Positions 12,213 to 60,200 of a stretch of 64,000 nt of DNA are shown here, piece after piece. The number at the start of each line of letters is the position of its first letter. Position 1 is the first letter of the stretch. The DNA comes from Massospora cicadina (Eukaryota; Entomophthoromycota; Entomophthoromycetes; Entomophthorales; Entomophthoraceae). The notes under the pieces were generated by a model that had not been told where the DNA came from, ran no database searches, and was given only the letters and a program-made list of their open reading frames with translations. The position numbers and the translations under genes are program-made. Location of the stretch: positions 44,574 to 108,573 of the forward strand of contig JAKSZP010017380.1 of NCBI GenBank assembly GCA_022478985.1. The letters are read 5' to 3'.

Positions 12213-13321
12213 TGTTAGATTTTAATGGTTGACTCAAAAATAACCCATCAAGAAAACCATCAATGCTGATAGATTACTCACATTGATGGATCCTTTGATC
12301 CTTCCAAAATTATCTGCATAATTTTTAAATTAGATTCACATAAAATTGCCTTGATTGCATCTAAACAACCCAATTATCGTAGCTAATGATAGCTATGATA
12401 TAATATTTTTAGTACTAGATGGTCCCAACCGCTATGATATAATATTATTATGGTCAATTATGGGACCCCCTTGGGTGAATCGAATGGGTTTACAACACAA
12501 ACTTAATTGCATATTTTAAATTTAATGCAGTTATAATTAATGAATATTAGATTTTATGTATGTTGGTCTTCATAATTGGCACAATAGTACTTGCACATGG
12601 ATGGCCCAAATAGGGAGTACCTAGTGCTATCAAGAGGCCTGCTGATATCCCAATTAGGGTTGCATCTTTATTTTTAATCCATATATTCTTTTCCCTCAAT
12701 TATTGTATTTTGTCAGCTGTATGACAATTTGTAATTGGGCTTATTGAAAGGTGAATATACACCGCTGAGGTGCTAATATTACGCCTAAAAATCTTCCCAT
12801 TTATATTAAGCAGTAGTGCCTCCAATTGGGCTGAAATGCTTGTAATTAAGTTAATTCAAGGGCCAAATTAACCTGTGGATTTTTAATACCCACTGCCATA
12901 ATCCATAGCAGATCAGCATGTCATTATTGAACTCAACAAAAGATGAGTATGGCCAGGAGATGCCCTAGAGGTATAAAATACTGATGCCTGGCCTTGACAT
13001 AAAATCATAGTCTTACCTTATCATCATCTTTTCCGTCTTTTATTATCTTTCTATTTGTGCATATTAATATTAAGAAGCGTAGACAAGCGTGAAGGGGAGC
13101 TTGTCATTCATATCTGCATCAGGAGTGTTCCCAATTATATAGGGGAAAGATACCCAGAAGAGACCAGAAAAGTCATATTTAATGTTTTAGCTTTGTGAGC
13201 TTCATAACGGTTAAGAAACACCATAAGAGACATAGCAGAATCGAGGATATATTGTCCAAAACTCTACCCACCTATCAAAACAGGAATATATTTATTAAGT
13301 GAGTAAATCTATAAACTTACA
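12213..13321 (+). repeat. solo LTR with CCACT target duplication
   Basis: A single 1109-bp LTR, TGTTAGATTTTAATGG...ATAAACTTACA, is flanked by CCACT at 12208-12212 and 13322-13326. No internal region is present, so it is the product of LTR-LTR recombination. It carries a TATA-like AGGTATAAAATAC (12969-12981). Its late part resembles the family C LTR. A micro-insertion lies inside it at 12392-12446. Confidence 0.9.
12392..12446 (-). mobile_element. micro-retroposon insertion A with 16-bp target duplication
   Basis: GCTATGATATAATATT occurs at 12392-12407 and again at 12431-12446. Between them is a 23-bp insert holding the core AGTACTAGATGGTCCC. Read on the minus strand, the insert is GGTTGGGACCATCTAGTACT followed by a short A tail, the form of an extremely 5'-truncated retroposon. 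The same core occurs in insertions at 29365, 59271 and, shorter, 24175. Confidence 0.8.
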
Positions 13322-13739
13322 CCACTATCTGGACAAGATGAGGCATATTCTGTTTAAGTAATGCCTTTTGGGCTTGAGAATGCGCCCACAACAATATTTA
13401 AAGAATGATCAATAGTGTGCTGGGTGAACTCCAGTTCACCTGCTTTTGCATATATCAATAATATCCTGGTACAGTCCCCTACTCCTAAACAGCACGTGAA
13501 GAACTTGGAGGCAGTAGTGGCTGTCTTGCATAAGGCTGGCTTGTATTTCAAGCCTTCAAAATGTGAATTTTACCAGGAGGAAGTCACATTCTTGGGTAGC
13601 CTTATCTTAAAAGATGGGTACGCCATTCTGCCCAGCAAACTGATGTCATCCACAAATGGCCAACTCCAACAACCCAAAAGCAATTGATTAGCTTCTTGGG
13701 CACTATTATATTTCTAAAATAAATCTCTGCTGCACTATC

Positions 13740-14170
13740 CCAGTTGGCTGCCCCACTCCATCCACATACATGCAAAAAAATCCCTTTTTGTGGATGCCTG
13801 AGTGCCAGCAGCATTCAATTTAATTAAGGAGTTTTTTGTGTTGCCCCCATCCTCAAGCACGCAGACCCTTCCAAACCCTATATTGTAGCATGTGATGAGT
13901 TGTTTGCCACAGTTGGGGCTATCTTGATCCAAGAGCACGATGGGTTGGAACATCCAGTTACTTATTTTTTTCTGCAAGTTCTCTTTCACTGAGAAATCCT
14001 GGACCATCTATGACAAAGAGCTATCTGCTGTGGTGTGGGCTTTGACCCACTAGCGGTATCTCTTGCAGGGCGCTCAGCATGAGTTGACTGTGCGAACAGA
14101 CCACCAATCTCTTCTCTATTTTCATGAGTCATAAAAGTTGGCACTCTGGCAGGCCCAAACCTACCGGAAT
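13740..14170 (+). pseudogene. chromovirus RNase H domain, family B
   Basis: Fragmented frames show EKSWTIYDKELSAVVWAL and ELTVRTDHQSLLYF, the conserved RNase H blocks holding the catalytic Glu and the last Asp-His pair. The first catalytic Asp is in a broken region. The neighbouring B fragment at 3525-3890 has the same domain. The domain would degrade template RNA during cDNA synthesis. Confidence 0.75.
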
Positions 14171-14499
14171 CTGTGCAGTTTCAACCTCAATATGAGTTTA
14201 TGAAAGGAGCGTTAAATATCCTCACCAATTTTCTAAGCTGCAACCCTGCACATTGTCCAGCTGACTCAGATGAGGCGGATCTTGTCACGGTCTCTCCCTC
14301 TACTCAAATTTTGGCTCTTGTACCTCCCATGGGTTTGTCAGCAGATATAGCTCAAGACACGCCTTTAATTATTCAGGTCTTAGCAGCATAGACAGCATGT
14401 GCTGAAAGGTTGGAACTTTTGGAGCGGTTGTCCCTCCCTTCCTCTAAGAATTCCCTTTATTCCATGGCCAAGGGGCTATTCTAATTTTAGCTGCAGTTG

Positions 14500-15180
14500 T
14501 GGGTCCCTCCCCTTCTCTAAGCTGAAGTAATTCAGGCTCATCACAATCCTCCTACAGTTGGTCACCCAGGGAATAAGAAGTGCATTGATTTATTTAAGTG
14601 CACCTATTATTTGCTGGGCTTGTCAAAGGAAAACCCAGCATGGATCACAGACTGTGTAACGTGCACATGAGCCAAATCAGACCGGTCTGATAGAAATGAT
14701 CTCATACATCCCTTGTAGCAGACAGAGGGTCCATGGACATTGGCGTCCATGAATTTTACTGTTGAGCTTCCCAGTTCAAAGGGGTTTACAGAGGTTATAA
14801 TGGTCGTAGACCGCTTCAATAAACTCTCCTTGTTTATCCCATGCTCTTCCTCCATCACTTCCAAAAAAACTTCCCGCCTGTTTGTGCAACATGTACTTTT
14901 GATGTTTGGGCTTATGCAAAAATTTTTCTTTGACCGCAGACCCCAATTTATGGCACAGTTTTGGAATGAGTACTTGGCGATTTTGAAGACCAAGCCCTGT
15001 CACTCCATTGTGTACCATCCACAGTTGGATGGCCAAACTGAATGGGTCAATCAGATCTTAGAACAGTATCTGTGGTGCTATGCTGTGCAGCTCAGGATAC
15101 CTGTGAAGATGACCTTCCTCTTACTCAGTTTACATAAAATAATGGAACGCATGAATCAACTGGCTTTCCCCATATGAAGC
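14500..15180 (+). pseudogene. chromovirus integrase core, family B
   Basis: The N-terminal HHCC zinc site is visible (HHNPPTVGHPG and later CVTC, about 14537-14672). The catalytic core follows from about 14740 in a 145-codon open stretch. The first catalytic Asp is changed (SMNF where SMDF is expected), the second is present (FFFDRRPQF), and the Glu is present in DGQTEWVNQ. A stop ends the frame near 15175. Integrase would have joined the cDNA to the host chromosome. Confidence 0.85.
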
Positions 15181-15559
15181 AACCTTGGGGTATAATCCCT
15201 CCTTTTTGGTTGGACAGTGTCTCCGCCCAGAGATACTGGCTGCAGCCAACCATGCTTAGCACATTCGGGCCACACAGCCCCAGGTTTGAGAGCATTTAAA
15301 TAAGGCCATAAGTGACTACAAACAGTTTGTGGATTAGAAGCAGCTCCTGGCACACAAGATTAAAGTGGTTTCACACGTCATGCTTGATACTCATCATTTT
15401 GTGGATTTAGGTGCCCTCCTGGAAGTTTAAAAGTAAGCACTAAGGTCCCCACCTGGTGGAAGAGGACTTGGATAATGGCGCCTTTCATTTAAAATTGCCA
15501 CCCCAATGGAAGAAACATCCAGTCTTCCACATATCCCAGTTGTCTCTTTCAAGGGGAGA

Positions 15560-15800
15560 TCCCCTTGGACCCAGAGCTTCTGATGATTGAGGGCGCTGAG
15601 GAAGCTGAGGTTGAGGGCATCCTGGCTTTCCAACGTTCAAGCCGTGTATTTCAATATCTAGTCGCGTGGAAAGGCTATCCAGCCTATGAGAATAGCTGGG
15701 TTGGCACGTGGGACTGTGCTAACTAGTCAGAGCTTGTCAAGGCTTTCCACACCACCATTCAGATGCACACCATCCACTCCAAAGATCGCCACTCTGATGG
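15560..15800 (+). pseudogene. chromodomain at the integrase C-terminus, family B
   Basis: The plus frame from about 15600 reads VEGILAFQRSSRVFQYLV, then AWKGYPAYENSWVGTWDC and ELVKAFH. This is the chromodomain pattern with the YLVKWKGY-type strand and the ENSWEP-type motif. In chromoviruses this domain steers integration to marked chromatin. It places family B in the chromovirus lineage. One internal stop lies before ELVKAF. Confidence 0.85.
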
Positions 15801-15888
15801 TTATTAATTTTCCTAAGGCCCATAAGAATGTGGCCCTTGCTCAATTCCCCAGTGGAGGCGCTTCCCCATCTGGAAAAGATAAGGGTAA

Positions 15889-16819
15889 TATAAGTCTGGG
15901 GGAGCACCTCCACTGTTTATACTGGGTGGCATTCCTGTTCACATCAAAGAGGAGTTTGACAAGGCCAGCTGCCCCTCTTGTCTCACAAAGCAACCTCACC
16001 CATGTGGTGGATGAGTGCTGGGTAACAGCTCTCCCTTTGAAGGCCCGCCACCCTTCCCCACATTTACTTCAGCTGAATTAGTGTGGCAGATTAAGAAAAA
16101 TGTGCTGAGATATCAGAAAGTCACTATCCCCATGGGGCAAAAAGCCCACTGAAGTTGATGGCAACAGGCCTTCGGCATTAAGGTCTTAGAGCCTCAAACC
16201 CTTGGCAACAAAGCCAGACAGGCATGTACTTTTGGTACATGAAGTATAAAGTGTCAAATCATTGGCAAAGCTCGCCAATGGCATCAGGCCATTGGTAAAT
16301 GCTGACACAGTTTAAAACCCTCCCTGGAAGTATAAAACCCCCATCTGACATTTCATGTTTAGTCCAACAGACGCCTGAGCAATTGGGTGTGGGCAGGTTG
16401 GGTGTCACAATCCTGTTACTGACCTCATAGGACCGCCCATACATGAGGGTGGCCTTGGGAGGTTCCTGTGGCCTTTTGGGCGAGACGCCATCACTCCAAT
16501 CATTAAAACCAAAGAAAATTAGCAATTTGGGCATCTGTGGATGAACCAACAGCAACTCAGCCCGCCGCCAACAATTTTGGATTCACTTTGAAATAATCAA
16601 ATTCCCCCTCGCTTAGAGTTCGCCAGGTTAGGCTGAATCTTGAGGGCCCTGATTCCGCACTTTTCTAAGCTATCCCTAAAAATTGTACATCTATTTAAGC
16701 AGTGATAACAGACTGAGAAAGTTTACAGTTGATTCTTTTATTTTTACATTAATAAAAATCTTCCCAATCTTGAATTTAATTAATTAAAGTTTGAATTACC
16801 TTGCTGAACCCCTGTGACA
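15889..16819 (+). repeat. 3' LTR, family B
   Basis: Partner of 9638-10569; it starts TATAAGTCTGGGG (the G of TG mutated to A) after the purine-rich GAAAAGATAAGGG and ends CCTGTGACA. It is followed by leader sequence instead of a target duplication. Confidence 0.8.
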
Positions 16820-17248
16820 ATTAAATTGTGGCCTCACAGCCCACATATTAACTGGGCTGTCTCAGTCGTATTTTTATTTTTGATCTCTGCCATAGTCACT
16901 TGGGCGTATTGTGTCAAGACCTTTCCAGAATTTTCCCTGATCTTACAACTCCCTACAGCCAGCCCCATTGGCCCTGGGACTGCAACAGCCTGGTTTCTCA
17001 CTGGGTTTTCCTTTGCGTTTGAGGCCTGTTGGCACCCCCTTGTTACACATATCCTGGTGCGCTTAGTTGCCATTCATGCGGAAATGCCCGTGGCATTCTG
17101 GATCGCCTTTTGGGTGCTTCTGCATCCCAACTGGAAGGCAGTCTAAAATTTATTTGCCATAACCATGGTCCCTACTTTCCAGTAAAGATTTGGGCAGTTC
17201 AGGATGCATGGTCAGACTGACTTAGATGGTCAGGTCCCAGGTTAGCAC
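16820..17248 (+). other. second partial leader/gag of family B
   Basis: It matches 10570-10920 after the other LTR closely (for example the shared blocks CAGAATTTTCCCTGATCT-like and GGCATTCTGGATCGCCTTTT). Then it is cut at 17249 by the family E LTR. It shows that family B here was part of a tandem or recombined array. Confidence 0.75.
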
Positions 17249-17802
17249 TGTTGTTATAATATAGGGCGATACCGTTGGGATATGATGTAAGGGTCACATA
17301 GGTCAAACTCACTGAACAACAGTCATATGATATTGGGATCGTCAGGCCTCTGAACACACTGGAATATATAATAAAATAGGAGCGATTGTTCTGACAACAC
17401 TTTTATTTTTAATAAATACAGAAAGAGTTGCTGTTCCACTCTCTCAATACTATTAACAACCTACTTAATTCAATAGCCCATCTTGCTTATATATCAGCAA
17501 CTTTGGACGATACCATTCACTTAGCTTAGACTATTCTATTACGCCAATTCTCATTATTTTCAGCTGGTATTCTTCAATTCTCTATCGCCTTAGTTTGAGG
17601 TGATCTAAATTTATATTTATTGAATGTTGATATCGCCTTGTCACCTTATTTGTAGGTAATCCAATAAACATTTGTTATGTTTCAATATCGCCTCAATTCA
17701 GGACGCTCAAATACTCATAAACAATCATCCTAATTGGCAGAATCTCACCATTCCGCCGTAGCTCTTTAAAGCTTATTGTCCACCCATATCAGAATCTTAA
17801 AA
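17249..17802 (-). repeat. 3' LTR, family E
   Basis: 554 bp, similar along its length to 24467-25018 and to the solo LTR at 41452-42018. On the minus strand it follows the integrase C-terminus after a purine-rich AAAAGGGGTTAAT, as a 3' LTR should. Confidence 0.85.
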
Positions 17803-18930
17803 TTAACCCCTTTTGACTGGACGATAAGTCTCCTATTGTTTATATGCTTGGAGAAACTTTGCATGCATGTGATTAATGATTCAACCACTCACTGGGTCTT
17901 AGATGGTATAAGCAAAGATGCTTGTTTTTTTAACTATTTCAAACGGATCAATCCATATGTTAGCCAGCTTGTGTTTCTGCCCAAACCTGTGCTGGTTGTG
18001 GAACAAAACCATCTAACCTTCTTTGAACTGAGCTAACCTGCTACGCCATACCTGATCAGTGGCCTGATTCTTAATCTTTTTGGACAAGCTGAATGAGTAC
18101 GCTTGTGTTTGTAACTTGATCAATGTGTCAGAAATTTTGTCAAGTACCGATGGGGATCCATTTCACAAGTATCTTATATGCACAAGTAGATCAAGTATGG
18201 GAGAGCGGGGTGTTGTACATATAATAGTTAATATGGGATCTTCTCCAGGGCAGAATGATAACTGATATTATAAGCAAAGACAGCGGTAGGCAGGAGGGAA
18301 CTCCAAATTAGAGGGTCTACCAGTTACCATCTTCCTAAGGATGTTCACCAACGTCCCATTGACCCGTTCAACCATTCCATTGGACTCAGGGAGATATGGA
18401 GTCATCAGAACCCCATGGATGCCCATGAGCTCATTCAATATGGGGAGACTGTGCAAGGTGAAGTTGGTTCCGTTATTTGTAAGAATGAACTGAGGGCAGC
18501 CATGTTGCTGGATAATACACTCAATTAAAAACTTGGCCACTGTGGCATCCCCATTCCTATATCACCTGCACTTCAACCCACCTGGTCAAGTGGTCAATAG
18601 CCACCAGAATGTACTTGCACTGGTTAGCTCTCATTGGCAGGGGGCAACAACATCAAGGGAAACTGTATGCCAAGCAAATGTGGTTTCACTATCTGGTACA
18701 AAGTCTTATGGCGGAACGGATTCTCCACTTGGCACTGTGGCAACAGGAAATAGTTTCAAGCACATCAATGTTAATGCTTTCTGAGTAATACCAATGGCGC
18801 AACAGTTTCATTGTCTTGTGTACACCACCATTTCTGGCTGCCTTGTGGGCGCTCATCATAATACCAGGCCATGCTGAGGGTCGCAGACAGTTCACCTTAT
18901 AATTGCTGATATATTTATACAATTCCTCAT
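17803..18930 (-). pseudogene. gypsy integrase (E/A2 element)
   Basis: On the minus strand, the core is in an open stretch (18268-18540) with ILTNNGTNF, where the second catalytic Asp is changed to Asn, and NGMVERVNGTLV holding the catalytic Glu. Downstream, the C-terminal domain is readable to the LTR edge (WIDPFEIVKK, FLQAYKQ). The zinc-binding N-terminal part lies near 18690-18922. Several stops interrupt it. Confidence 0.8.
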
Positions 18931-18959
18931 TCCAATGGAAGGTATTCGTTTACATCTTA

Positions 18960-19480
18960 TTTAATGCTTTTATTACTTGGGGCATTTCGTCGCCATTTTT
19001 CTGCTGAGAATTGTATCATACATCACATTGCCAAGATCTGCCATAACTGCAATGGTTGGCAATCTAGATAAGAAGCCAGAGTTCTAATGTTTTGGTACCG
19101 GTTGGTGGAGGATCTTGAAGTAATAAGCCTGCAGTTTGAGGGCCCATCATGCTAGACGCCCTTCAGACTCCTTGAGGTTCTGCAACCAACGTAACAATGC
19201 GTGATCCATTATGACTTTAAACTTTAACCCATGCAAAAAGACCCTAAATTGCTTATATGCGTAGATCACCACTAAGCACTCTCACTCAGTCATGGTATAA
19301 TTACGCTCATGGCAGTTCAGGCTTTAACTGCAGTATGCAACGGGATTCTACTCTCCCTCGTTGTCTTTCTGAGAAAGGACTGCCCCCACAACGGAAAGGG
19401 ATGCATTTGTGTGAACAATAAACTTCTATTAAAGTTCAGATAGCGTAGCACCGGTGCACTGATCAGCTCCATCCAAAGTA
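18960..19480 (-). pseudogene. gypsy RNase H domain (E/A2 element)
   Basis: Broken minus frames show VHTNASLSVVGAVLSQKD (first catalytic Asp changed to Asn), ERNYTMTE and later KVIMDHALLRWL, the standard gypsy RNase H blocks. It lies in the expected order between RT and integrase. Confidence 0.7.
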
Positions 19481-20340
19481 AGTCAAAAATGTATTGATGG
19501 CTTTCCATCCATTTGAACATGGCATCCTTTTCAACAGCTCAAATAGGGACCCCAATACAGCTGAAGTTAGGGATGAAGCGCCAGTAGTAGCCGACCATTC
19601 CCAAAAATACCTGTATGTCACATTTACTATTAGGTGTAGTCATTTTTTGGATGGCCTCCACCTTGGCTGGCTGTGGTGTCAGCCCCTTAGAATCTACCAC
19701 AAACCCCAGGTATTCCAACTGGTCCTTGAAGAAGTTACATTTGGGAGGCTTTATCTTGATGTTTGCTTCAGTGAGCCAGCGGAATACTGCTTCTAGATGA
19801 TCAAGGTGCTCAGAAAAGGTTCAAGAGAAGTTTTGATATCATTGAGGTATATGAGGACACACAACATCATCAGGTTGCCAAGAATAGTGTCCATGGCGCG
19901 TTGGAACGTAGCTGGGTCATTACACAGCCCTTTTGTCATACAGGTCAGTTGAATAAAGGCCTTTGGATGTGATTACGGCGCATTTCTCCTGTTCCGCCAC
20001 AGGCAACTAGATTTGCCAATAAATGGATATCAAATACATCGCCAAGAAGTAGCGAGCTCCTCCTAACTGATCTAATGCTTTATTATCCAAGGCAAGGGAT
20101 ACAAGTCCTCCTTGGTAATTCTGTTGAGCTTCTGGTAGTCTATCACTACCCAGTTGGTGCCATAATTCTTCTTTACAATCAGAATGGGCGAAGCCCAAGG
20201 ACCCTTGGATGAATCAAGCATCCCTTGCTCCAACAACTTATCAGTATCCTCGGTGACAATGTCTTCAGCTGCACTCAATCAGTGGAATTGCTGAGACCTG
20301 ATAGGAGGATGATCCCCAGTGTTCAATTGATTGACCACCC
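19480..20340 (-). pseudogene. gypsy reverse transcriptase (E/A2 element)
   Basis: The fingers are in an open stretch (20072-20278) with EQGMLDSSKGPWASPI and DYQKLNRITKEDLYPLP. Past several breaks the active site reads YLNDI instead of YLDDI near 19840, losing the first of the paired aspartates. It is inactive. It belongs to the same clade as elements F and A1 by these motifs. Confidence 0.8.
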
Positions 20341-21260
20341 CAAGCACATCCTAAATCATGGTCATCGACGGCAAAAATCTCCTTATACTTCTTAAATAAA
20401 GCTATTGCTTGGTCTTTTTGTTCTTCCAATAGCCCTATTAAATTCTCCTGTGGTACCACTGTCATTAAGCCGGGCTGTGACTTGACGGTTAGACCAAATT
20501 CATTTAACAAACTGAACTTGTGAACCGGAAGGAACTCCTCAATTGGGTCAAGTGTAAATACGCCGCTACTTGGTGTCAACGGATTTGCATTGGTTCATTC
20601 TGGAGATTTACTAACAAAACCTTAATCTCCATAGCCTGGAAATATAACACCTGGAGCCACATGAGGCTCAAACCGCGTTTTCTGATAGGGCCCATTGACC
20701 TCCCCATAAAGCCCATCTGGCACTTCCACCTCTAACTCAGAGTTCACTATGACTTGGTGTCTGGAAGGAATAGATATAGGCCCTGCAGCTCGGAGAGATA
20801 ACCCTTGGTATTCATATATCTGCTGGGGAAGGGGCTGAGTCTTGCTTTTTAGTAGAAGATAGCAGACTGGAATCACTATGTCTCTATATGAAAGATTGAT
20901 ATGGCCCATGTGCACTGGATCCTTTGGCACTCTGCTAGAGGTAAAGTAAATTGGGATCCTCTGCCCCAAAATTTAGAAGGTCTCCTCTGTCATATCAATG
21001 ACAGCCCTGAGATGTCGCAGAAAAGAAGTTCCAATTTACAGGTCATAGTTACTGTTGGGTAGCATTATCACTGGAGCTATAATGACAATGGACCTGGACC
21101 GCAAAGGTAGTACACTGTACGCTCCCTCAGAGACTTGCTTTCCGCTCCAGCGTCCCATACACCATTTGATGGTCCACATCATGTTTAAACATCAACTTTG
21201 CCATCAACTTAGTAGAAATTATGTTGACCAGAGCGCCTGTATCTTTTATAGCACAAACTT
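20340..21260 (-). pseudogene. gypsy protease and protease-RT linker (E/A2 element)
   Basis: The protease active site is visible near 21230 as DTGALVNIISTKLMAKL. The protease C-terminal block NYDLLIGTSF lies near 21035. Downstream to 20265 are two fairly open stretches (115 and 104 codons) making the linker to RT, with a plausible uncharged lead-in to RT but no named domain. The DTG triad is intact. Confidence 0.75.
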
Positions 21261-21739
21261 TATTTCGCTACAAGAATATGGCAGTATTTACACTCAGAAT
21301 AAGAAGAATATTGACTGTTTGATATGTGAACGTTTACGGGATCTCTTCTACCAAGGAAACTCATATCCCCTCACCAACTTTGAGGTATTCTTTAACAATG
21401 GCATCTACCAGAAGGGCAACGTTATCTCCTTTAAGAGTTGGTGCATCTGCGGTGGGATTCAGTTTGTCTGAGGAAGCTTGATCAAACATTTGGCAGGCGT
21501 ACGGCTTTGGTTGCTCCTGTAGCCCTTCATTCACCGCGGCCTTCGCTTGCGCTTGTGTCAGTATGTTCACTCCTCCAAATGGTTGCTGGTATAAAATTTC
21601 GTCATTGTATTGAGGGACTTCCGTGGGATATACTATTATTGATTCAGGGACGTTTGGGGTTAGGACACCGGAGGTAGAGAGTCCCATCCTTATTCCGCTC
21701 ATTCTTTTCCCTGATAGTACTAGTACTGTTGCACTTAGT

Positions 21740-21825: not shown

Positions 21826-21859
21826 TTTCATAAGAGGGTCCAGACCGGTAAATTAGTTG

Positions 21860-23230: not shown

Positions 23231-24286
23231 TGTCGCAAAATCGACCATGGGCTCCACTAGTATGCCAGGCCAACAAGTATGAATATTGGTTGGCCTTTTG
23301 CCATTTTGCCTTCATTGGTGTACCAACCCCTATAAGTCCGCGTTCAACCAACAACCAACCACCAACAACTTTGCCTTAGCCCCAAGTGCTCTCAGTGTGC
23401 GCTCTGGCGAGTCCTGCCCCCATCCTGGGCGGCTCAGCACTCCCATGCTGCCCCACCCTTGTGACCCTTCACCAACCCATCTGGGCATCCCCCGATGAGT
23501 ACATCCCCTCATCTTGGGTGGCTATGGCACTCCCGCGCTGCACCCCACAAGGTTGGTGGCCAGTCAGCATCTGCCATTGGTGTCCAGATGGCCAGGTTCC
23601 CACCAGGTTCTCATAAGGAGGAGGCATGGGAGCTGGCAGCACTTGCCACTCCAGGCGTGGTCATCCACGCCTCTTGGGGATCTCTAGTCCCATATACTCC
23701 TAATCTAGCTGACAAACTACTATCAAATAAAAGTAAGATGTTGAAGAGAGATGTTTATTTGGAAGGAATGAATGACTATTTATACTTAGGCTACTGTGCC
23801 TCTATAACCCCTTGGCCATCCAAGCCAGAACTCTATCAGATTATCATTTTTTTCATTCATTTATTATAGCGATTCCCTCCTAATCTGCACATCTGATCAC
23901 CAAATATCAAATTAGGTCAATCCATCCTCAGCATGCGTCACCAGTCGATCATATATAAATTCTTATTTAGAATAGAACTTTGAGCATCCTTAGCATGAGT
24001 TGCCAGTGCTCCAAATTAGTTGGCAGAAATATATTCAAATGGATGGTAACAGAATCATTGGCTTTCCACCAGAAACTCCCACAACAATCCTCAATTTGGC
24101 ATTTTGGCAGCGAATGCAGATTCTGACAAACCTAAACACAAATTAATAATATAACATTAAAAGTATCAAACTAATCTAGTAAAAAAAAAGTATCAAACTA
24201 AGCGTTTAGCCAGCAATTACATCCAACTAACTTATACTCTTAGTCCTGATACTATCAGAAGGAATCCATTGGGTAAAATCTTGACA
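23231..24286 (-). repeat. LTR, family A2
   Basis: On the minus strand it starts TGTCAAGATTTTACCC and ends TTTTGCGACA, 1056 bp. It matches the solo LTR at 41069-42739 and the LTR start at 63749. A TATA element (AAGTATAAATAGTCATTC) at 23769-23786 is conserved at 42172-42189. It is unusual in having both a purine tract just upstream and a primer-binding site just downstream. It contains micro-insertion D. Confidence 0.85.
24159..24201 (+). mobile_element. micro-retroposon insertion D with 16-bp target duplication
   Basis: AAAAGTATCAAACTAA occurs at 24159-24174 and 24186-24201. Between them is the 11-bp insert TCTAGTAAAAA. The other A2 LTR copies (near 41155-41175 and 63830-63845) have the empty site. 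The insert matches the 3' end of the core seen at 12408, 29365 and 59271 (TCTAGTACT plus A tail), but on the plus strand, shorter and lacking CT. Confidence 0.65.
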
Positions 24287-28599: not shown

Positions 28600-29470
28600 G
28601 ATATGGCTTACCCGCCGACCAATCCTTATGTATCTTGGCTACCATTCATATCTCTGAGGAACTAACCCCAATGGAGCTCGACAAGGTCCACTCCATACTT
28701 GAGACCTATAGCGTCATCTTCTTAACCTCTGAAACTGACTATGGGCACATAAAGGGTTGGACTTACAATACTGACGTTGGGGATGCTTGACCCATCTGCT
28801 CCAAACCTTACCGCAATTCTAAAGTTGAGGAGCTAAAGATGAAGACGGAGCTCAAACAGTTTCTGGACGCTGGGTTGCTGGTTCTGTCACAAAGCCCTTT
28901 GTCGTCCCCTCTTTTAATTATAAAGAAAAAAATGGAGGTCATCTGGTTGTTATGGACTACTGTAAACTGAATAACCTCACCAAGAAGGACACCTACCCAA
29001 GCCCCCATATTGATGACACTCTGGCCCAACTCTTTGGGTCCAATTTCTTTTCTGCCATGCACTTGGCTAGTGAGTACTGGCAGATGGGCCTTTCTCCCTA
29101 GAATCAGGAGAAGTGCGCCCTTATCTGTAGCGAGGGCCTATTTCAAAACACTTGGTTACCCCAGGGGTTATGCCATGCGCCTGCCACTTTTCAGCGAGCT
29201 TTGGATCATATTCTCCAGGATCTCAACCTGAACTGTGTGATTGTCTATTTCGATGACATCACAGTACACTCCATTACTTTCAATGAGCACCTCATGCACC
29301 TAAAAGACGTGTTCCAACGCCTGCAGGCTTCTAACATTAAGTTGAAGCCATTAAAATGTACTTTTTTTAGTACTAGATGGTCCCATTAAAATGTACTTTC
29401 TTCCAGAAAAAACTGGATTTCCTTGGGCACGCCATTTCACAAGATGGAATCCACCACTATAAGATAAGGT
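28600..29470 (+). pseudogene. gypsy reverse transcriptase, A1 copy 2
   Basis: Blocks in order: DYCKLNNLTKKDTYPSPHID (about 28955-29010), FFSAMHLASEYWQMGLSP, GLCHAPATFQRALDHILQDL, and the active site VIVYFDDITVHS (about 29240-29275) with both aspartates intact. After KLKPLKCTFF the frame is destroyed by micro-insertion B, which adds 35 bp. The thumb continues as LDFLGHAISQDGI. Several stops are also present. Confidence 0.88.
29348..29399 (-). mobile_element. micro-retroposon insertion B with 17-bp target duplication
   Basis: CCATTAAAATGTACTTT occurs at 29348-29364 and 29383-29399. The 18-bp insert between them is TTTTAGTACTAGATGGTC. On the minus strand this is GACCATCTAGTACT plus an A tail. 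The duplicated stretch is RT coding sequence (PLKCTFF), and removing the insert with one repeat restores the RT frame, so the event is certain even though its source is not. Confidence 0.88.
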
Positions 29471-46625: not shown

Positions 46626-47019
46626 AAGAAGCCACCACCCATCTTTCAATAAAGATATGCCCCAGATCATTGATATTGACAAGAGTCAGAGACCTAGGGT
46701 TGGTACCCCTCTTAGTCCTAAAAGGGCTTATATTCCTTTCCAGTTTAATAGCTCTAGCAGAAGACCTTAAAGTGTTGAAACCCATAAATCTCAATTTTTA
46801 ATATAGCTTCTAGGACCTGAAAAGCCATCATATAAGGGCAATTAGTTTTAGATGGTTTAGATTTAAACAATATAATTTACTTGCTCATCCTTGAACTATG
46901 CTTAAAATAGTTGGTTTATTGCCACAAAGATAATACATATAGATAGATTATTTAACCAAATTTAATATGATTAAACTTATATTTGCTATAGCTTTTTACC
47001 ATTGTATATTCATGCCACT
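46626..47019. other. spacer, nothing recognised
   Basis: About 390 bp; a 67-codon plus ORF that begins inside the F LTR is chance. No motif seen. Confidence 0.5.
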
Positions 47020-50492: not shown

Positions 50493-50503
50493 ACTTACTT
50501 TTA

Positions 50504-50642: not shown

Positions 50643-50824
50643 ACTTACTTTTATAATCTTAAGAAATTAAATTGGTAGAATTATTTAGGAAAACTGGTAC
50701 TTATATTTTTCTAAAAAATTATTCATATATAGACTTAATATATATTTCCACTTTTTTAGTATTATTAAAAACCTTAAGAGTACTTTTATAAAAAAGTATA
50801 AAATTCTTAAATATATCATTCTGA

Positions 50825-50953
50825 AGTGTGGTTAGCCGAGCGGGTAAAACTGCTTCCACCCCTAGTGCAGGTTTTGAGTTCGAAACCTGTACTGGCTAGA
50901 AAAACTCTTGGTGTGGTATATTTGTCCCAAGGTTGACCCACCTCAAATACTTT
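50825..50953 (+). mobile_element. SINE-1 copy b, tRNA-derived
   Basis: 129 bp with an A box (GTTAGCCGAGCGGG, 50831-50844) and a B box (GAGTTCGAAACC, 50876-50887) at tRNA spacing, closest in pattern to a Leu or Ser tRNA. The 3' part ends GTCCCAAGGTTGACCCACCTC. Flanked by TTAAATATATCATTCTGA at 50807-50824 and 50954-50971, an exact 18-bp target duplication. Internal pol III promoter expected. Confidence 0.88.
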
Positions 50954-51367
50954 TTAAATATATCATTCTGATATGTAGGCTCTTGGAAATATCTATATTT
51001 TATTAGCAGCTTTATATTATACTTGCAAGTTCTTATAAAAGCTTTTAGATACTGTTAATATATGTTTATTCTAAAATAATTGCTATTTAAAAATTATAAT
51101 ATCTAATCTATAAGTATTTTATACTAAAATAGGATTATTTTTATGCTCAATACTTTTTACTTTTTAAGTTAACTTTAATACTTTCTATTTTAACAATAAA
51201 AATAAAAAGCTAATGAAATATATAATTATAAAATTTTTGATAGTAGTTTACTTTACCTGATTTCTCTGTTCATGATAGATATATTTCTAATTAAATATAT
51301 AATATACTAGCATCCAGATACCCATGCTTCTCTACGGTGTTTATAGTTTATTAGATAATTTATATTG

Positions 51368-51610
51368 ATAAACCACTAACTGATTAGCATAACCATTAAT
51401 ACCAAATCAACCAATCACCAACTTATTTTATAAGACAAATCTAAACTTATCAAAACAACTAAAACCACCAATTACTTGCCAAAACCGATTAACTTATTGA
51501 ATTAACCAATTACTAACTATTTACTAAAACCATTAAACTTATTAATCAACCCAAAACCATCACCCATTTGGCAAAACCATTGAAACTATTGAATCAACCA
51601 AAACTCAAAC
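51368..51610 (+). repeat. degenerate minisatellite
   Basis: Loose repetition of a unit around AAAACCATTAAACTTATTAATCAACC with spacing of some 45-60 bp, strongly diverged. No coding sense. Confidence 0.45.
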
Positions 51611-51817
51611 TGCTTTTCCTGTAACAATACACTGATTAATATTAATAATTATAGGTAAAATATTTTAACGTTTTAAAAGATGTTTTATTTTGCAAAATTA
51701 ATATTTTTATATTTTTTAATGGATTAACGTATTGTCATAGAAGATACATAAGTGTGAAAAATTACAAAGCTTTAGCTAGTCTAGAAAATTGGTTAAAAAT
51801 CAGTCGCAAGATTTCAC

Positions 51818-52073
51818 AAGTAAGGACCTCTACCGCTGCCTCCCCGAGTTCGATTCCGGTACTGGAACTTTGGGTAGGGGACAAATATAACTGTTGGCGT
51901 TGCGCACCAATGCCCCGAACCGAGATAGCGAATAGCAAAGGCGGTCCATGGAGTTCCTGGCCTATCATACGCCGCGCGTGGAGGCTTTCCGGATTTTATC
52001 CTCCTTTCCCATTCATTCGATTTCCCTTAATCGGTGCGGTATCGTCCCCAGGTCGGCCCACCTCGAAAATTAT
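51818..52073 (+). mobile_element. SINE-2 copy a (5'-truncated)
   Basis: 256 bp with a B box (GAGTTCGATTCCGG, 51846-51859) but no A box, then a GC-rich body shared with 52480-52729 (CCCCGAACCGAGATAGCGAA, GGCGGTCCATGGAGTTCCTG), ending TCCCCAGGTCGGCCCACCTC then A-rich. Flanked by AAGATTTCAC at 51808-51817 and 52074-52083. A 120-codon ORF across it is chance. Confidence 0.85.
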
Positions 52074-52479
52074 AAGATTTCACTACAAACAGATATACAG
52101 ACACCACAGCGAGTAGAGAAAAATGGTTTAAAAACATATAAAACTTTCACTTCTTATGTATAAAACTTTTTATTTAATTATGGAAATTAAAAATCCGGCT
52201 TTGAGGTTCACTGAGCCCCTTCCGTCTAGCTATATCCAAAGCTTAAAACTATATGCCATAGTTTTAGCTGGGCACCATACACATATATATACAAACACTT
52301 GCTTTTATTATTATAGATAGATTTTGTTGTATTTTAAAAATAACTATTTTTATATAGTGCCCTTTTTAACCCTTAAACAGATTTGAGGAAAAATGTTTGT
52401 GCAAATTATAGGGGCACAAAAATAAAAATTTAAATAGTTCAAAAATATAAAATTTTAAAATCATTATTGCGGAGAACAA

Positions 52480-52729
52480 CCACTGCCTCCCGAGTTCGAT
52501 CCCGGTAATGGACTTTGGGTAGGGGACGATTTTGACTGTGTTGGTTTTGCGCGCCAATGCCCCGAACCGAGATAGCGAATAGCAAAGGCGGTCCATGGAG
52601 TTCCTGGCCTATCATACGCCGCGCATGGAGGTTTTCCGGGTTTTATCTTCCTTTCCCATTTTCTTCACTTCCCTAATCGGTGCGGTACCGTCCCCAGGTC
52701 GGCCCACCTCGAATAAAATTTAAATTTAA
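52480..52729 (+). mobile_element. SINE-2 copy b (5'-truncated)
   Basis: 250 bp, similar to copy a throughout and much more GC-rich than its surroundings. B box GAGTTCGATCCCGG at 52492-52505. It ends TCCCCAGGTCGGCCCACCTC plus GAATAAAATTTAAATTTAA. Flanked by ATTATTGCGGAGAACAA at 52463-52479 and 52730-52746, an exact 17-bp target duplication. Confidence 0.9.
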
Positions 52730-52919
52730 ATTATTGCGGAGAACAAAACAAAAATTTGGTTTTTGAAAAAAGAAATTGATTTACAATTCGAAATTGAGCA
52801 AATAGCACATATATTTTAATTCGTTATATATTTGCGTTGAAATATGAATAAAAAAGCATAGTTTCATTTCTGCTTTGAATTCCATCGCCTTCTGATTCCA
52901 TTTTTAGGGGTAAAATAAA

Positions 52920-53071
52920 TTACACTTAAAGGTGTAATGAATGGGCAAAAAAATATTACACTTAAAGGTGTAATAGGCAAAAAACAAAGAACACTTAAAG
53001 GTGAAATGAGAAAAAAACAAATAACACTTAAAGGTGAAATGAGCAAAAAACAAATTACACTTAAAGATGAA
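52920..53071 (+). repeat. minisatellite of small hairpins, about 5 units
   Basis: Units start at 52920, 52957, 52990, 53023 and 53056 (33-37 bp). Each has ACACTTAAAGGTG followed by an A-rich linker such as GCAAAAAACAAAT. In the first two units the arms TTACAC and GTGTAA pair around TTAAAG. No gene next to it. Confidence 0.85.
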
Positions 53072-53555
53072 ATTTCCTGTTTAAGGATTAATATACTAAT
53101 GAATTAAACTTCTTAACTTACCTTGTAGTCAAGTTTCAGGTCAATATAGACTGACTAAAATTGTATTAACCAACAAAGTTCTCAAAACAAGTCAATAAAA
53201 ATATCGCTAAGGTCATAAAACTAACCTACCTAGGTAATTTGTAAAATATGACATATATTACAAAAGATAGGTTTTGTTTAATGCTTCACATTCCTTAAAA
53301 TCAGAAATTAAAGATAAGAAAGTTATAGAATTTTTCTAGTACAAATGGCTGCAAATTAAGGCTATGATTTAGCATATCTAGAAAACTTTACAATCTAACC
53401 AGTGGAGATTGTAGAGCTAGATAGTTGTGAGCTAGAATATTAACATCTACACATAAAGAAATAAAGAAATGTTGAGACATTTTACATTTAGATTTCCACT
53501 TGAGTTCACTTTTGAGAAATTTAATTAAGAAATAAGTTTAATTTTCCACTGCCAT
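53072..53555. other. AT-rich spacer
   Basis: No gene or repeat seen; it leads into the ORF1 copy. Confidence 0.5.
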
Positions 53556-54560
53556 ATGGCCACGCCCTTTTATAATATGTCCATGGATCAGCTGCCTGCT
53601 GCTCCAATGTGGGGTAGCGGTGCTCCACCAATTAGTATTTTCTGCCCTGCAGGCAAATGCATTTGCATAGGGTTGAATAGCCTGCCATCTTCATCCAGCC
53701 ATTTTGTCCCCCATGGGATTTATCACTCCACCTGGCATGCATCCACCCTTCTTGCCCCCATCCTCTCACCCTCCCTCAATCCACAATCTGATTTTGCCTC
53801 CAAGTTGACTATAGGCATTTATTCCCATATGCTGACAAGGCAATTATTGAATTGGCCACTGCTGCATTTGTGCCAGCTGGCTTTGTCAATTTCTGCCCTT
53901 TTAAGGGCTATTTTGTTATTGGATTCCAGACATAGGAGGCTGCTGCAGCAGCATCTTCTACTCCCCTTATTTTTAAAAATACTCCCATCTCTATTACCTG
54001 AAATCACCTGCTACAGATACCACAATGGTGGTGTCCTTTTCATTCCTCCCTTCCTATCTCCCACTCCAAGTTTTGTATGATCAGCTGATGGCAGGGCTTA
54101 TGGCATATAGCTCACAGCCCAACCTTGTCTTTGCTGTTCTCTCCAGTATAGAGTGCCTTGCTGCTCCCCATGCAACTGCCACCATTATCCCACACCACCC
54201 TGCCATAGCCCACCAAATCCTCCTATGCTTGTATTGCAGCAGCGCGTGAGCACTTTATTGGGCTCAGGTGGATAATAGTCACCAAATTTGTCCCCTCTGT
54301 TTTTAGACTTGACCATACCAAAAAATTCTGCCCCTGAGCCACTTCATCTGATACAGCTTCAGAGCCACATTCAGAAGGTTCTGAATAGGGTATTTTACTG
54401 CCCCCTCTCACTTAACATTCTCATTCAATGGGACAGAGCGGAAAATTGGCCCCCATCAAATCAACCACCCACATTAACCCATCTAATTTTACTTCCACCA
54501 ATCAGTTTCAGGCTTGGACCACTATTTGCTCCCAAGCAACCCATTCTCCCACTACCACCC
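53556..54560 (+). pseudogene. LINE ORF1-like protein, copy 2, 5' part
   Basis: Similar to 32600-33340: MWGSGAPPISIFCPAGK at the start, GFVNFCPFKGYF-type block near 53880, the MVVSFSFLPSYLPLQVLYDQ and LMAGLMAYSSQ block near 54025-54110, and a decayed knuckle near 54280-54330 (CPLCF, then a frameshift, then DHTKKFCP). It is cut at 54560 by LTR element H and continues at 63395. The last five bases, CACCC, are the left target duplication. Confidence 0.82.
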
Positions 54561-55125
54561 TGTTGAGATTGAGGAAGGTCTGAAGGTGGGTCCTTCAAAG
54601 CTTGCTGAGGTGGACAGGTGAGGGGAGGACTTAACCTTAATATCAGGTTCAGAGGTCCTAATAGTTAATAGTTAGGGACTTAACCACACTGGTTCAAAGG
54701 TCTCAAAAATAAGAGAGTGAACTTTACAGAGAGCCTAATTAAAGGTAGAAGTGTAAAAGTTATTTTATTGAGTAACTCATTTGAACCTTAAATAGTGCTA
54801 GTAAAATAAGGGATAAAATAAGGGATATAAGGAATGATTGGCGCATACCCTGGTGGAATTGGGACCTGTAGGAAAGTCCCAATACTGGGATAGATGGGAA
54901 TAGATAAAACTATGGATAGAGATTAGATAACAAACTGGAAAGGTTAATTATCCCCAAATTTGGCATAATTCAGGCAAAGCCCCAAATTTGGTATTCCAAT
55001 CAAAAACATAAAATTGAACTCCATTCTCAAAATTATTGGGCCATTTGAAAAATGTGCCCTTTATATGAATATATTGACCTTTCCCCTGGACAAGGCTTTC
55101 ACCTAATCCTAGGAGAATCCTGACA
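54561..55125 (-). repeat. 3' LTR, element H
   Basis: 565 bp. It matches 62796-63394 closely apart from a 45-bp-scale duplication and a short deletion. The last codons and stop of the element H gene (stop at 54948-54950) lie inside it. Confidence 0.92.
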
Positions 55126-55145
55126 ACGCCCTTCCCAAGCCTTGT
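55126..55145 (-). promoter_or_regulatory. polypurine tract, element H
   Basis: On the minus strand AAGGCTTGGGAAGGGCGT directly before the 3' LTR start TGTCAGG. Confidence 0.55.
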
Positions 55146-56200
55146 CCTAGAAGAGTAAGTTGGGCCCTGAGGGTTAAGGTAGACAGAAGGCTTAAGCTCA
55201 GTGGTGTACGGAGCCTCAAGCCTGATGCAGACCAGGTCAGTGATGCTGGTGCGGGAGTTGTGGAAGTAGAACTTGATATGATCAGCCAAGGTGTGATGTG
55301 ATTTGGAGAGGATCATGAGACTGCGGATATCAGTGGCTGCAACGTCTAGATTCTCATGGCGGTGCTGGATGGTGTTGGCAGGGAACGCCTCAATGTAATT
55401 GAGGTCACAGTACATGGAAATGCGGAATGGGTTGCTAGGTGAGTCAAGGTGGGGTACTGCAAGGAAGGCGTTGGCGACTCCGCAATATGCTTTTAGAAAT
55501 TTATGGCTGTTGCCACTGAGGGCACCAAAGTCAAACCCAAGCAGCGCCTTGCCAAGCGCATCTGTCATGAGGTACTGGGTGTAGGCATAGAGGCTGAAAT
55601 GGAGATTGCTGGTGAGGGTGATAGCGGAACTGGTGACAAAAGCATGAATAGAAGAATTGTTTTTGAGCAGGCAGAGCAAGAGGTGGCCAATGTCCATGTG
55701 GGTAAGGTTGTTGGGCAAGTTGAAGGTGAGGTGTGGATGCCTGAACTTGGAAGCATCTCCAATGATGCCTTGCTCATGTTCACACTTGATAGCTTTGGCG
55801 GGGCTCAAATGGAGCAGCTCAAACACCTCGTCCACCCCAGTATCATAAAGCTTATAGGGGTATGCCTGCAGATGGTCATTGAGCGCCCACTGAGACTGGA
55901 TGGCAGATGAAAGGCGGCCAGCTCCTTGGGCACCATCTTGAAATCTGCTTGGGGATGGGACCCAGAAAGGCGATGGTGTGCTTGTCAGTTTTGAGGTTGA
56001 GATGGAGTTCAAATCGATCCTCCTTGTTCTCGTGCAGGTTCTCCTTGCTAACCCACTTCAGATGTGGCATAAATGTGTCGCTGATCACCTCATGGCAAAG
56101 CTCATCACGCCCAAAACAGACGCTCTGCATCTCTGACTTGGGCAGCAGCCAATAGGATGGGCCAAAATGCTGGCAGTTTTTTCTGGGGTCAGCATTTATT

Positions 56201-56620
56201 TTAGTAATGTCTGGCCCAATTTCTGAGGGGAGCCATCAAAGTCAGAAAGTGGTAGCATTTCCAAAAAGAAGTCATTGAGCTTCGCTTTTTCTTGACTCTC
56301 ATTTTTGCAGGGATTGGCGCTATCCAAATATGAGGGCTGAACCAGGTAATCCAAAAATTTTGCTTTAGTAATTTGTGGCCAAATTTTGGGAGGGGCGCCT
56401 TTAAAGTCAGAAAGTGATAGGATTATCAGAAAAGGGGTTATTGAGCTTCACTTTTTAGGACTTGCGTTTTCATAGGGATCAGCGTTATCCCCATCTGAGA
56501 GCTGAAACAGGTAATCTTGATACTTTATCTTAGTAATATCTGATCCAATTTTTGGAAAGGAGCCATTAAAACTGGAAAGCAATAGCGTTGGCAGAAAAGA
56601 GTCATTGAGATTATTACCAA
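56201..56620 (-). repeat. tandem 164-165 bp repeat inside the element H gene
   Basis: Unit starts (TTAGTAAT on the plus strand) at 56201, 56365 and 56530; about 2.5 units. The period is 55 codons, so the repeat keeps the frame. Each translated unit has a core like SDFKGAPPKIWPQITK, then a Tyr/Leu-rich stretch, then an acidic Asn/Asp-Pro segment. Confidence 0.75.
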
Positions 56621-57239
56621 TGGTGCTAAGGTAAGTCCCAGATATTTTGCCTGGCATTTGAATCAAATCATTGCACTGATTGCTTTTGAGGCTTCCCAAA
56701 AATTCCTGCAGCTTGCTGCCTTTGTCAAATTTGGAAGCTAGTTCTCAACTTGTTGGCTCAACTTGTTTGGTCCAATTGCTCAGATGATGCTCATCCAAAT
56801 TTAAATTCAGCACCTTTAACTCCAAACACTCAATAAAATTTGTTCTAATTTCTTTAAATCAGAGTGGAAAATGAAATCGTTGCAGAGAATGGGTATTAAT
56901 CGCCTAAATAAATATTATTGTTAGTATTTCAAATCATTTGTTTATAAATTCTGAGTATTCCAATTTGTTTGATCTCCGCTTTTTGACTGAAGGATAAGCA
57001 TCTCCTGAAGGAAAATCTCAGTGATGGTGGTCTTGTATTTAACCAAGAGTGCATCAACATTTTCCATTATCTTGTTCCTTTCTTTTATTTAACTGAGGTA
57101 AGCTGACCAGGGGATGGACATTACCAAATATATGTAAAACTAAGGAAATAACTGACAAATATAAAAATTGGGCACCCCAGGGTACTCAAGTTACCCCTGT
57201 TGCCAGCGAGACTGCCAGGTATGGGGGGTTGGTGCACTA

Positions 57240-60200
57240 CTCCAAGGGGGTTTCCCCTGCTATGGAACAGGTGTGAAGGAAAGGGTCTGTGTGGAGGAAC
57301 CAGAGTGGGAACCATGATTCTATGAGCGCTTTTTGCCTTGGTCTCATATATCCATAGAGCCAGGCTTGGAATTGCTCCAGTAAGTGGACATGGAATCTGT
57401 TAATAACCCCATGAATGGTTGGGACCGTGCCCTTGAACGCATCTAATGCAATTGTGTGGATTGTCCACATTGCAATGGATATTATTAGGGAACGGAGGGT
57501 AGATGGGATTGGTGACTCAATCTGGAGCGCGAAGATGCTCTTTGATATCAAGAATTCTTGTTTGTTTTGGATCTTAAGCAGGCGTGCGACTTCCTGCCAT
57601 ATAGCTTTGGTTGGGGGGCATGTTTCTAGGCGGTGATGTAAGACCTCCCTCCATATACTGCACATGTTTTGTGGAGGGAGTTGGAACGGTCTGCCGTCCT
57701 ATAGGTCCTTCTCAGACAGCGCCAGGCGTTTGCTCTTATCCTCGGCTGTAGGAGTGGGTGGTGAGTCATTTTTCACATTGCCTTATGTGTGGTTAAATCA
57801 TAGAGAATGTCCAACATATCTAGGTATTCTATCCTAGCTATGTTTGGGGGTTGTTGCGAGCATATCCCTCTGGGGGTGGTTTTCTGGGTTTCTTAATTTG
57901 AATTGGGGGCTGGGTCGTCCCCTTCCCTGTATAGTACCCATGTTCTCTATGGTCCATCCCATATGGCGGATAGTTTGGAGGATATGTTTGAAATGAGGGG
58001 AGGTTTCATGTGGACCCGTTGCAGTAGGGTGCTTGGCAAGGTATGAAAGTAGTCTGGGTGGACTATGTGGGTTGGTTAATTTGAGCGCCTGTGCAAAGTT
58101 AGTCCTTGCTGCTCTGGACCAATGTTGTTGCAGGAGGTCTGGAGCAAGGATTTCCTTTATCCAGGTACCTAGGATGTGATTTGCATGGCTCTCAAAATCT
58201 ATTAGTCCCATGCCTCCGCTTGAGCGTAGTCCAAATAGTGTTTCCATCCGTATAGGAGGGTGAGAGCCAGGCCACAGCCAGCCCTGGATAAGCGCGCGGA
58301 TTGAGGTTATAAAGGTAGGTGAGAAGGCTATCGCGTGGGCCTGGTACCACAGTATTGGGAGGATGAGTGAGTTAGCAACTGTAACTCATCCTATTAGTCC
58401 TGGGGTTCTTCCCTTGAGGGAGGCGACGCGTTTGGATACCCGTTGTAACAGGTTACTTTCCATTGTCTCATTAGCATATCCCCCTGATTCTAGCCAGATT
58501 CCAAGGTGTCAGACAGGAGTGGTGGTGGAAGGTGTTGCAAAGTGTAAAATGATTGGGTTTTTTCTTCGTGTGTTGGTATGAGGTTCTGATGTTGTGGCCC
58601 AATTGTTTGTGTATTTGCCTAAGAGGATGATTTCCGTCTTTCTTTTGTTGAGTGATGCATTGCTCACCTTGGAGTATTCCTCTAGAGTGCGTTCCAGCTG
58701 TCAGGCATCTTCATAGTTTGCTATGCCTGCTACGCAGTCATCCGCAAAGGCCAGTATCTTGACTGTTGGTTGTCCTTATGCGGTTATCCCCATAAGACGT
58801 GAGTGAGTTACTTGGAGGAGTGGGTCAAAGCTGAAATTGTATAGCAGTGGGTTGAGGGGATCCCCTTGTTTGAGCCCTCTGTGTGGTTTAATCTTGTTTG
58901 TTAGGAATTCAGGGCCACATACAGCCATGGTTGCAGATTCTGTTAGGAGCATCGCCCATTTTATGACTCTTGGTGGGAGTTTGAAGGCATGTAGACATTC
59001 TTTTAGGTATGGCCAGCTAACATGGTCATACGCCTTTTTTTGATCCAAGAAGACCAGGGCACCAGTTGCTTAGTATTGACAAATGTTTGCAACAGGGTGA
59101 ATGTTGTTCCAGATTGAACACCCTGGTATAAACCCAAACTGGTTGGGTGATAGGACGTCAGATGCAATTGCGCCTAATCTAGCTGCTAAATTTTTTGTTA
59201 GAATTTTTGTGTCAGTGTTGGAGAGTGCAATTGGGCGCTAGTTGGCCAGGTCCAACTTGTCACCCTATTTTTTTTAGTACTAGATGGTCCCAACTTGTCA
59301 CCCTATTTATACAAGGTTATAACGTAGGATTCATGGCCTCCTGGTAAAAGTCATGTTTCCAATAAGCTCTGGTTCATAGACGCCAATAGGAGGGGGGCGA
59401 TTTGATGAAAATATTTTTGTAAAATTCGTAGGGTATCCCATCAGGCTCTGGGCATTTCCTACGTGGTGCACCGCAAATTGTCTCCCAAAGCTCCTCCCAT
59501 GTAATAAGGGATAGTATATTGTAATTCAGTGGTGTACTTTGTATCTCAGCAGTTTGTATAAATTCTTTAATTTTTTGTGAATCTGTTGGCTTTTCACAAT
59601 ATAATTCGGTGTAATAGTGGTATACTTCCTCCTTGACCTCCTCAGGGTTGGTTGCCACAGTGCCGTTGATCTTGCAGACCTGTGTGCATGTGGGCTGGTT
59701 TCTGCAGGAGTTTAAATTGGCAGAAAAAGTATGTTGAACAGGTTTCGCCTTCCTTTATGAACTTATCTTTGTTCAATACTTTGATTCTGTGTTGGTGTTC
59801 AAAGATGAGATTGTTAATTCAGGCAGAAATTTCTGCCCATTTGCATCCCCAGTTGGGGCTATAGCCAGATCTCAGAGTATTTATTTCCAGGTGGTCTAGT
59901 TCCGCCAAGGTACGCTTGATTGTGGCCATGTCTGCGGTGTACTTACATGATGCAATATGTCAGGTTTTGTTGATTAAATCCTTTTTGAAATTTTCCCATG
60001 TTCTGATGGAATCTGAAGTGAATGGGGCTGTGAATTCTGGGTTCATAGCCTTGTTTTCAACCCAGTCAGATATCTTGGGCAATTTTATATTTTCCAGGTG
60101 AAGCTTTCTCTAAGGCGACACCTGTGTGTGGGATTGGGTTGGCACTAACTGCACTGTAACTAATTGTTGGTCAGAAAAATTGATCTTTTTTGTTATAAAT

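What the first reader, a model, noticed from the sequence alone, without database searches (positions are those of the whole stretch)
12392..59308. A family of ~11-23 bp retroposon insertions with a constant core and 16-19 bp target duplications
Four sites (12392-12446, 24159-24201, 29348-29399, 59252-59308) show the same event: a target string of 16, 16, 17 and 19 bp is exactly duplicated, and between the copies sits only a tiny insert. In three the insert is GACCATCTAGTACT plus an A tail (with up to six more 5' bases, GGTTGG, at 12430); in the fourth it is TCTAGTA plus A's. The A tail at one end, the long duplications and the microhomology (GG or TTGG) at the other end fit target-primed reverse transcription of a specific RNA 3' end that stops after about 10-20 nt. 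Three inserts stop at nearly the same base, which ordinary random 5' truncation does not predict. Empty sites exist: the RT frames at 29365 and 59271 are whole without the insert, and other A2 LTR copies lack the 24175 one. I know of no described element this short.
Basis: partly seen in the sequence, partly recalled or inferred. Interest (0 to 1): 0.86.

Follow-up and report, generated by a model that had tools for sequence, protein, structure and literature searches.

The report
Fungal LINE leaves mostly tiny copies
The tiny inserts are the last 14-43 letters of a 6-kb jumping gene in what is very likely the cicada fungus Massospora; about nine in ten of the roughly 25,000 copies bearing that end are this short and most of the others are full length, likely because the copying enzyme either stalls at once or runs to the end of its template.

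Summary
In detail: three window sites carry GACCATCTAGTACT plus A's between exact 16-19 bp target duplications; the fourth (TCTAGTA) is a probable rare 3' variant. The idea of a separate ultra-short element does not hold: the string is the 3' end of an APE-type LINE of 6.0-6.4 kb, found 24,723 times in the 1.47-Gb assembly (very likely Massospora cicadina). Nested pattern counts give three classes: about 69% stop before a C run 14-28 nt from the A tail, with diffuse ends; about 21% are 40-43 nt long and begin at one exact nucleotide, the last A of AATAAA; about 11% go further. Words 1.0, 4.7 and 6.0-6.4 kb from the 3' end occur 3,222, 3,155 and 3,020 times, so intermediate truncations are rare. 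I propose, as inference, that the reverse transcriptase either stalls within the first ~25 nt or copies to a template end, of which there are two: the LINE RNA's own 5' end and a discrete end about 42 nt from the tail. It is a known kind of element with an unusual all-or-nothing length distribution.

The parts
12392..12446 (-). Class A copy: 23-nt insert 12408-12430 (GGTTGGGACCATCTAGTACTAAA) between 16-bp target duplications 12392-12407 and 12431-12446
24159..24201 (+). Probable rare 3' variant: 11-nt insert 24175-24185 (TCTAGTAAAAA) between 16-bp duplications 24159-24174 and 24186-24201, inside an LTR; two related LTRs have the single target
29348..29399 (-). Class A copy: 18-nt insert 29365-29382 (GACCATCTAGTACTAAAA) between 17-bp duplications 29348-29364 and 29383-29399, inside a decayed Ty3-type RT region
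59252..59308 (-). Class A copy: 19-nt insert 59271-59289 (GACCATCTAGTACTAAAAA) between 19-bp duplications 59252-59270 and 59290-59308, inside a decayed older LINE

Best explanation
The inserts are ultra-short 3'-end copies of one 6.0-6.4 kb APE-type LINE, and they most likely arise because its reverse transcriptase either stalls within the first ~25 nt of target-primed copying or else runs to the end of its template. Shown: the shared 3' end, target duplications of mostly 12-19 bp that mostly start with A, a short A tail, three discrete length classes, and few copies between about 43 nt and full length. Inferred: (1) class A (14-28 nt, diffuse ends) comes from stalling in a GC-rich predicted hairpin beside the RNA 3' end; (2) class B (40-43 nt, starting at the last A of AATAAA) comes from run-off at a discrete 5' end of a short 3'-terminal LINE RNA; [quoted passage not shown] (4) 5' junctions are sealed with 0-5 nt of microhomology or a few untemplated bases.
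For: String present 24,723 times, control 0. 79 copies examined (76 of the 100 listed hits, all on contigs C1-C8, plus 3 in the window): 47 class A, 3 stopping in the C run, 19 class B, 10 class C; duplication of 12 bp or more found within 420 nt in 62 of 79. Nested counts: 7,773 reach AATCCCC, 2,657 reach AATAAA. Flat counts beyond: 3,222 (~1.0 kb), 3,155 (~4.7 kb), 3,020 (5' end). Of the 10 long sampled copies 8 are full length and 8 have exact duplications of 13-19 bp. Class B starts at one nucleotide: 19 of 19 sampled have the A; CATCGATG.. 5,814, with A 5,750, with AA 3,155. RVT_1 and Exo_endo_phos domains in the long element; closest solved structures are LINE-type RTs including human LINE-1 ORF2p. 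First duplicated base is A in 56 of 61 and second in 56 of 61; A tail beyond the target's own A's has mode 5.
Against: The hairpin is no more stable than dinucleotide shuffles (z 0.03, -0.36, 0.02, -0.55), a 125-nt stretch prefers another fold, and its outer stem is broken in 3 of 8 full-length copies. No RNA data: the ~42-nt RNA is not observed. Junction microhomology is modest (27 nt in all against a permuted mean of 15.5; 25 of 2,000 permutations reach it; 32 of 44 have none; one of the 44, L028, is mis-scored). An intermediate copy exists (L072, about 0.5 kb). CTAGTACTAAAA occurs 40,235 times, control 534, so many copies are shorter than 14 nt or mutated and the short class is not bounded by these counts. 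Seven sampled short copies gave only a 9-11 bp duplication.
Confidence: 0.55

Rival explanations
1. Abortive target-primed reverse transcription on full-length RNA alone: both short classes are RT stops, class A in the hairpin and class B at an exact block such as a protein or base modification at the AAUAAA hexamer; RT that passes both is fully processive.
For: Needs only one template; class B ends inside AATAAA, a hexamer that host factors bind (recalled); all classes share the same 3' end and target features.
Against: Class B ends are single-nucleotide sharp and include the hexamer's last A, whereas a bound factor would be expected to stop RT before its site (recalled reasoning, not tested).
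Confidence: 0.33
2. Ordinary random 5' truncation of a LINE, seen by chance as short copies.
For: Short truncated LINE copies are common in general (recalled).
Against: Counts hardly fall from 1.0 kb to the 5' end (3,222 to 3,020) while 89% of ends lie before AATAAA.
Confidence: 0.04
3. An independent element or small host RNA about 20 nt long, not derived from a LINE.
For: The window itself holds only short copies and no longer one.
Against: Sampled long copies continue from the same 3' end into a 6-kb LINE with its own duplications; no paper of the held library contains GACCATCTAGTACT; no Rfam match in the window or in L073.
Confidence: 0.02
4. Filler DNA from repair of staggered breaks, without reverse transcription.
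For: Microhomology and extra bases at some junctions.
Against: One fixed 3' end, an A tail, duplications starting with A, and full-length LINE copies with the same kind of duplication.
Confidence: 0.01

Closest known systems
LINEs of Massospora cicadina, reported as L1 LINEs making up 6.3% of its genome (eLife 2024, PMC11105155, section 6 read)
   Same: Same organism very likely; APE and RT domains; part of the LINE expansion reported there
   Different: That section describes share and age of LINEs, not copy lengths or 3'-end copies; which of its families this is was not tested
Human LINE-1
   Same: ORF2p is the closest named solved structure; A tail, target duplications, full-length and truncated copies, junction microhomology (general features recalled)
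   Different: Here few copies lie between about 43 nt and full length, one truncation point is a single nucleotide, and the A tail has a mode of 5
Stringent-type LINEs such as zebrafish ZfL2-1 and ZfL2-2 (PMC4176376, passages read)
   Same: A specific 3' end is used; a stem-loop near it is predicted here
   Different: There the stem-loop was shown to be bound and needed; here it is only predicted, with weak support
SINEs
   Same: Class B is a short unit of nearly fixed length with a fixed 5' end, spread in thousands of copies
   Different: No separate head: the whole unit is LINE 3' sequence of 40-43 nt

Membership tests
APE-type LINE (non-LTR retrotransposon) | Reverse transcriptase domain | tested here: met
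   RVT_1 E 7.8e-31 in L073:6672-9449
APE-type LINE (non-LTR retrotransposon) | Apurinic-type endonuclease domain upstream of RT | tested here: met
   Exo_endo_phos E 3.5e-8 in L073:5859-6398, a separate open stretch in this copy
APE-type LINE (non-LTR retrotransposon) | Variable-length target duplications and A tail | tested here: met
   61 clean cases, 12-22 bp, mode 17, tail mode 5; 8 of 10 long copies with exact duplications
A named LINE clade (L1, Tad1 or other) | Place in an RT tree | not tested
   No tree was built; best listed protein relative 34% identical
Ordinary 5'-truncating LINE | Smooth spread of 5' ends along the element | tested here: not met
   Nested and internal word counts
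Stringent-type LINE | 3' stem-loop required and bound by ORF2 protein | tested here: inconclusive
   Hairpin predicted, not better than shuffles; binding cannot be tested here
SINE | Own head (tRNA, 5S or 7SL derived) distinct from the partner LINE | tested here: not met
   Class A and B units consist of LINE 3' sequence; no Rfam match in L073
SINE | Separate short template RNA | not testable with these tools
   No RNA data; sharp class B end is indirect support

The most novel reading that the evidence does not exclude
The LINE is accompanied by a discrete ~42-nt A-tailed RNA cut from its own 3' end exactly inside AAUAA^A. The LINE machinery inserts that RNA thousands of times as a head-less micro-SINE, and RT itself works all-or-nothing: it stalls in the first 25 nt or goes on to the template end. 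The genome is then a nucleotide-resolution record of some 25,000 or more initiation events, about nine in ten of them ending within 50 nt.
Probability: 0.45. Interest if true: 0.85.

Novelty: new variant of a known kind. Interest (0 to 1): 0.74.

Why it matters
Why most LINE copies are 5'-truncated is an old open question (recalled). Here one family has left some 25,000 scorable events with three separable outcomes, two of them possibly run-off ends, so stalling, template ends and processivity can be told apart from genome sequence. Inserts this short escape usual repeat annotation (recalled), so LINE insertion events could be undercounted in other genomes if their LINEs behave likewise.

Tried and rejected
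Exact 17-mer hits in two viral contigs sit in alike flanking sequence without duplications and were taken as chance. A known structured RNA as source: no Rfam match in the window or in L073. A recalled likeness of the reversed string to 5S rRNA was dropped because the A tail lies on the other strand. A hexamer-bound factor as RT block was demoted, not excluded (rival 1). Near matches at 46842 and 61812 show no duplications or tail. Papers: no held paper contains GACCATCTAGTACT; listings showed no title or abstract start that describes such a length distribution, and one search listed nothing. Only open-licence PMC papers are held, so this is weak evidence of absence. Papers seen: PMC9584336, first of three parts; PMC11105155, passages and section 6; PMC4176376 and PMC13174262, passages only; the rest listings only. 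Not done: clade tree, whole-genome 5'-end histogram, count of CCATCTAGTACTAAA.
Full report
1. Observation. The four sites are exact. In 20 dinucleotide shuffles no exact direct repeat of 14 bp or more appeared at period 20-110; the window has 7, of which 4 are these sites and 3 are of tandem-repeat type. On the element strand three inserts are (GGTTGG)GACCATCTAGTACT plus A's; the fourth is TCTAGT plus A's. Two LTR relatives keep one copy of the 24159 target. The RT frames hit at 29348 and 59252 carry adjoining motif parts on the two flanks, read apart, but also stop codons, so they are decayed.

2. Where it is. The only protein hit of one window ORF is from Massospora cicadina. The window's assembly has 1,469,884,898 bases in 16,968 contigs and its contig C1 is 1,107,499 bases. 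The published M. cicadina MCPNR19 assembly is 1.488 Gb in 19,694 scaffolds, longest 1,107 kb, 92% TEs (PMC9584336).

3. Genome-wide. GACCATCTAGTACTAAA occurs 24,723 times, control 0. The script found a duplication of 12 bp or more within 420 nt in 62 of 79; of the other 17, 10 are long copies whose duplications lie farther away and 7 had only 9-11 bp.

4. The parent. Sampled long copies share up to 6.4 kb. Of 10, 8 are full length, with the upstream junction 6.04-6.43 kb from the core and one or two copies of a 376-bp 5' repeat; L080 reaches 6.08 kb by its duplication with a deletion near its 3' end; L072 is about 0.5 kb. Exact duplications of 13-19 bp flank 8 of the 10; L072 shows one with a mismatch by eye and L074 gave none by exact search. 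L073 carries RVT_1, Exo_endo_phos and, below its cut-off, zf-RVT, and its RT matches human LINE-1 ORF2p. No clade was assigned.

5. Three lengths. The sample gives 47 class A, 3 stopping in the C run, 19 class B and 10 class C. Genome-wide, 7,773 reach AATCCCC and 2,657 reach AATAAA; by subtraction A is 16,950 (68.6%), B 5,116 (20.7%) and C 2,657 (10.7%). These are approximate: B copies with a changed AATCCCC fall into A, and at least one listed C hit is chance. GGGTTGGGACCATCTAGTACTAAA occurs 10,294 times. Past AATAAA the counts hardly fall: 3,222 at ~1.0 kb, 3,155 at ~4.7 kb, 3,020 at the 5' end, each with up to 2 mismatches and control 0; they exceed 2,657 because that pattern is exact. By eye from the listings, 37 of the 43 class C ends listed on contigs C1-C59 have an exact 4.7-kb word (33) or 5'-end word (4 more) at the expected distance; the listings show exact words only, so this is a lower bound. 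Shorter ends exist: CTAGTACTAAAA occurs 40,235 times, control 534, so up to about 15,000 more copies are shorter than 14 nt or mutated; one 13-nt insert with a duplication was seen among the fetched loci.

6. Sharpness. Class A ends spread over 0-11 nt upstream of GACC in 44 copies with good duplications; 32 show no microhomology and 12 show 1-5 nt; 12 show extra bases, one of them (L028) mis-scored because it is a C-run stop. Class B: 19 of 19 have the A before CATCG or CATTG and 4 of 19 match the element further. Genome-wide, ends with CATCGATGAATCCCC number 5,814, with the preceding A 5,750, with AA 3,155. About 71 of the 100 listed class C ends carry that exact string (by eye), which puts about 1,900 of these in class C; a second A then occurs in roughly a third of class B, close to random flank. 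So the B end is in effect one nucleotide, the last A of AATAAA.

7. Integration. In 61 clean cases the first duplicated base is A in 56 and the second in 56; lengths are 12-22 with mode 17; the A tail beyond the target's own A's has mode 5. This fits target-primed reverse transcription by an APE-type enzyme at nicks next to T's, on a fixed and short-tailed 3' end. Nanopore-based assembly may blur A and C run lengths. Duplications differ at 5 of 687 bases in class A and 5 of 299 in class B, so many insertions are recent.

8. Mechanism (inference). Two sharp ends (B and, in the sample, mostly full length) and one diffuse end (A) suggest run-off at two template ends plus stalling near the start. 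The predicted hairpin is no more stable than shuffles and a longer stretch prefers another fold; this step is weak. The main rival keeps one template and makes B an exact RT block at the hexamer. RNA 5' ends would decide.

9. Known or new. LINEs are known, and L1 LINEs are reported as 6.3% of this genome. In the listings I saw no description of a LINE whose copies are mostly either under 50 nt or full length; open-licence papers only. I rate it a new variant of a known kind.

Noticed in passing
window 54948-56057 (-): A 369-aa open frame whose only database relative is annotated as a cytochrome P450 of Massospora cicadina (68% identity over 28% of the frame); perhaps a transposon-derived stretch inside that gene model.
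   Followed up: no
window 57237-62300 (-): A decayed older LINE that hosts the 59252 insert; its 3' end does not resemble the tiny inserts (by eye).
   Followed up: partly
window 52917-53060: A minisatellite of about 33-bp units around ACACTTAAAGGTG.
   Followed up: no
L071, L073, L077, L079 versus L074, L075, L076, L078: Full-length LINE copies carry either two or one of a 376-bp repeat near the 5' end, like the 5' monomers of some LINEs (recalled).
   Followed up: partly
L080, near the 3' end: A nearly full-length copy lacks about 116 nt just upstream of the terminal 83 nt yet kept the same 3' end.
   Followed up: no
P0002: The best listed protein relative of the LINE RT is filed under a plant, Thalictrum thalictroides (34% identity, 5,255-base contig), perhaps a contaminant.
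   Followed up: no
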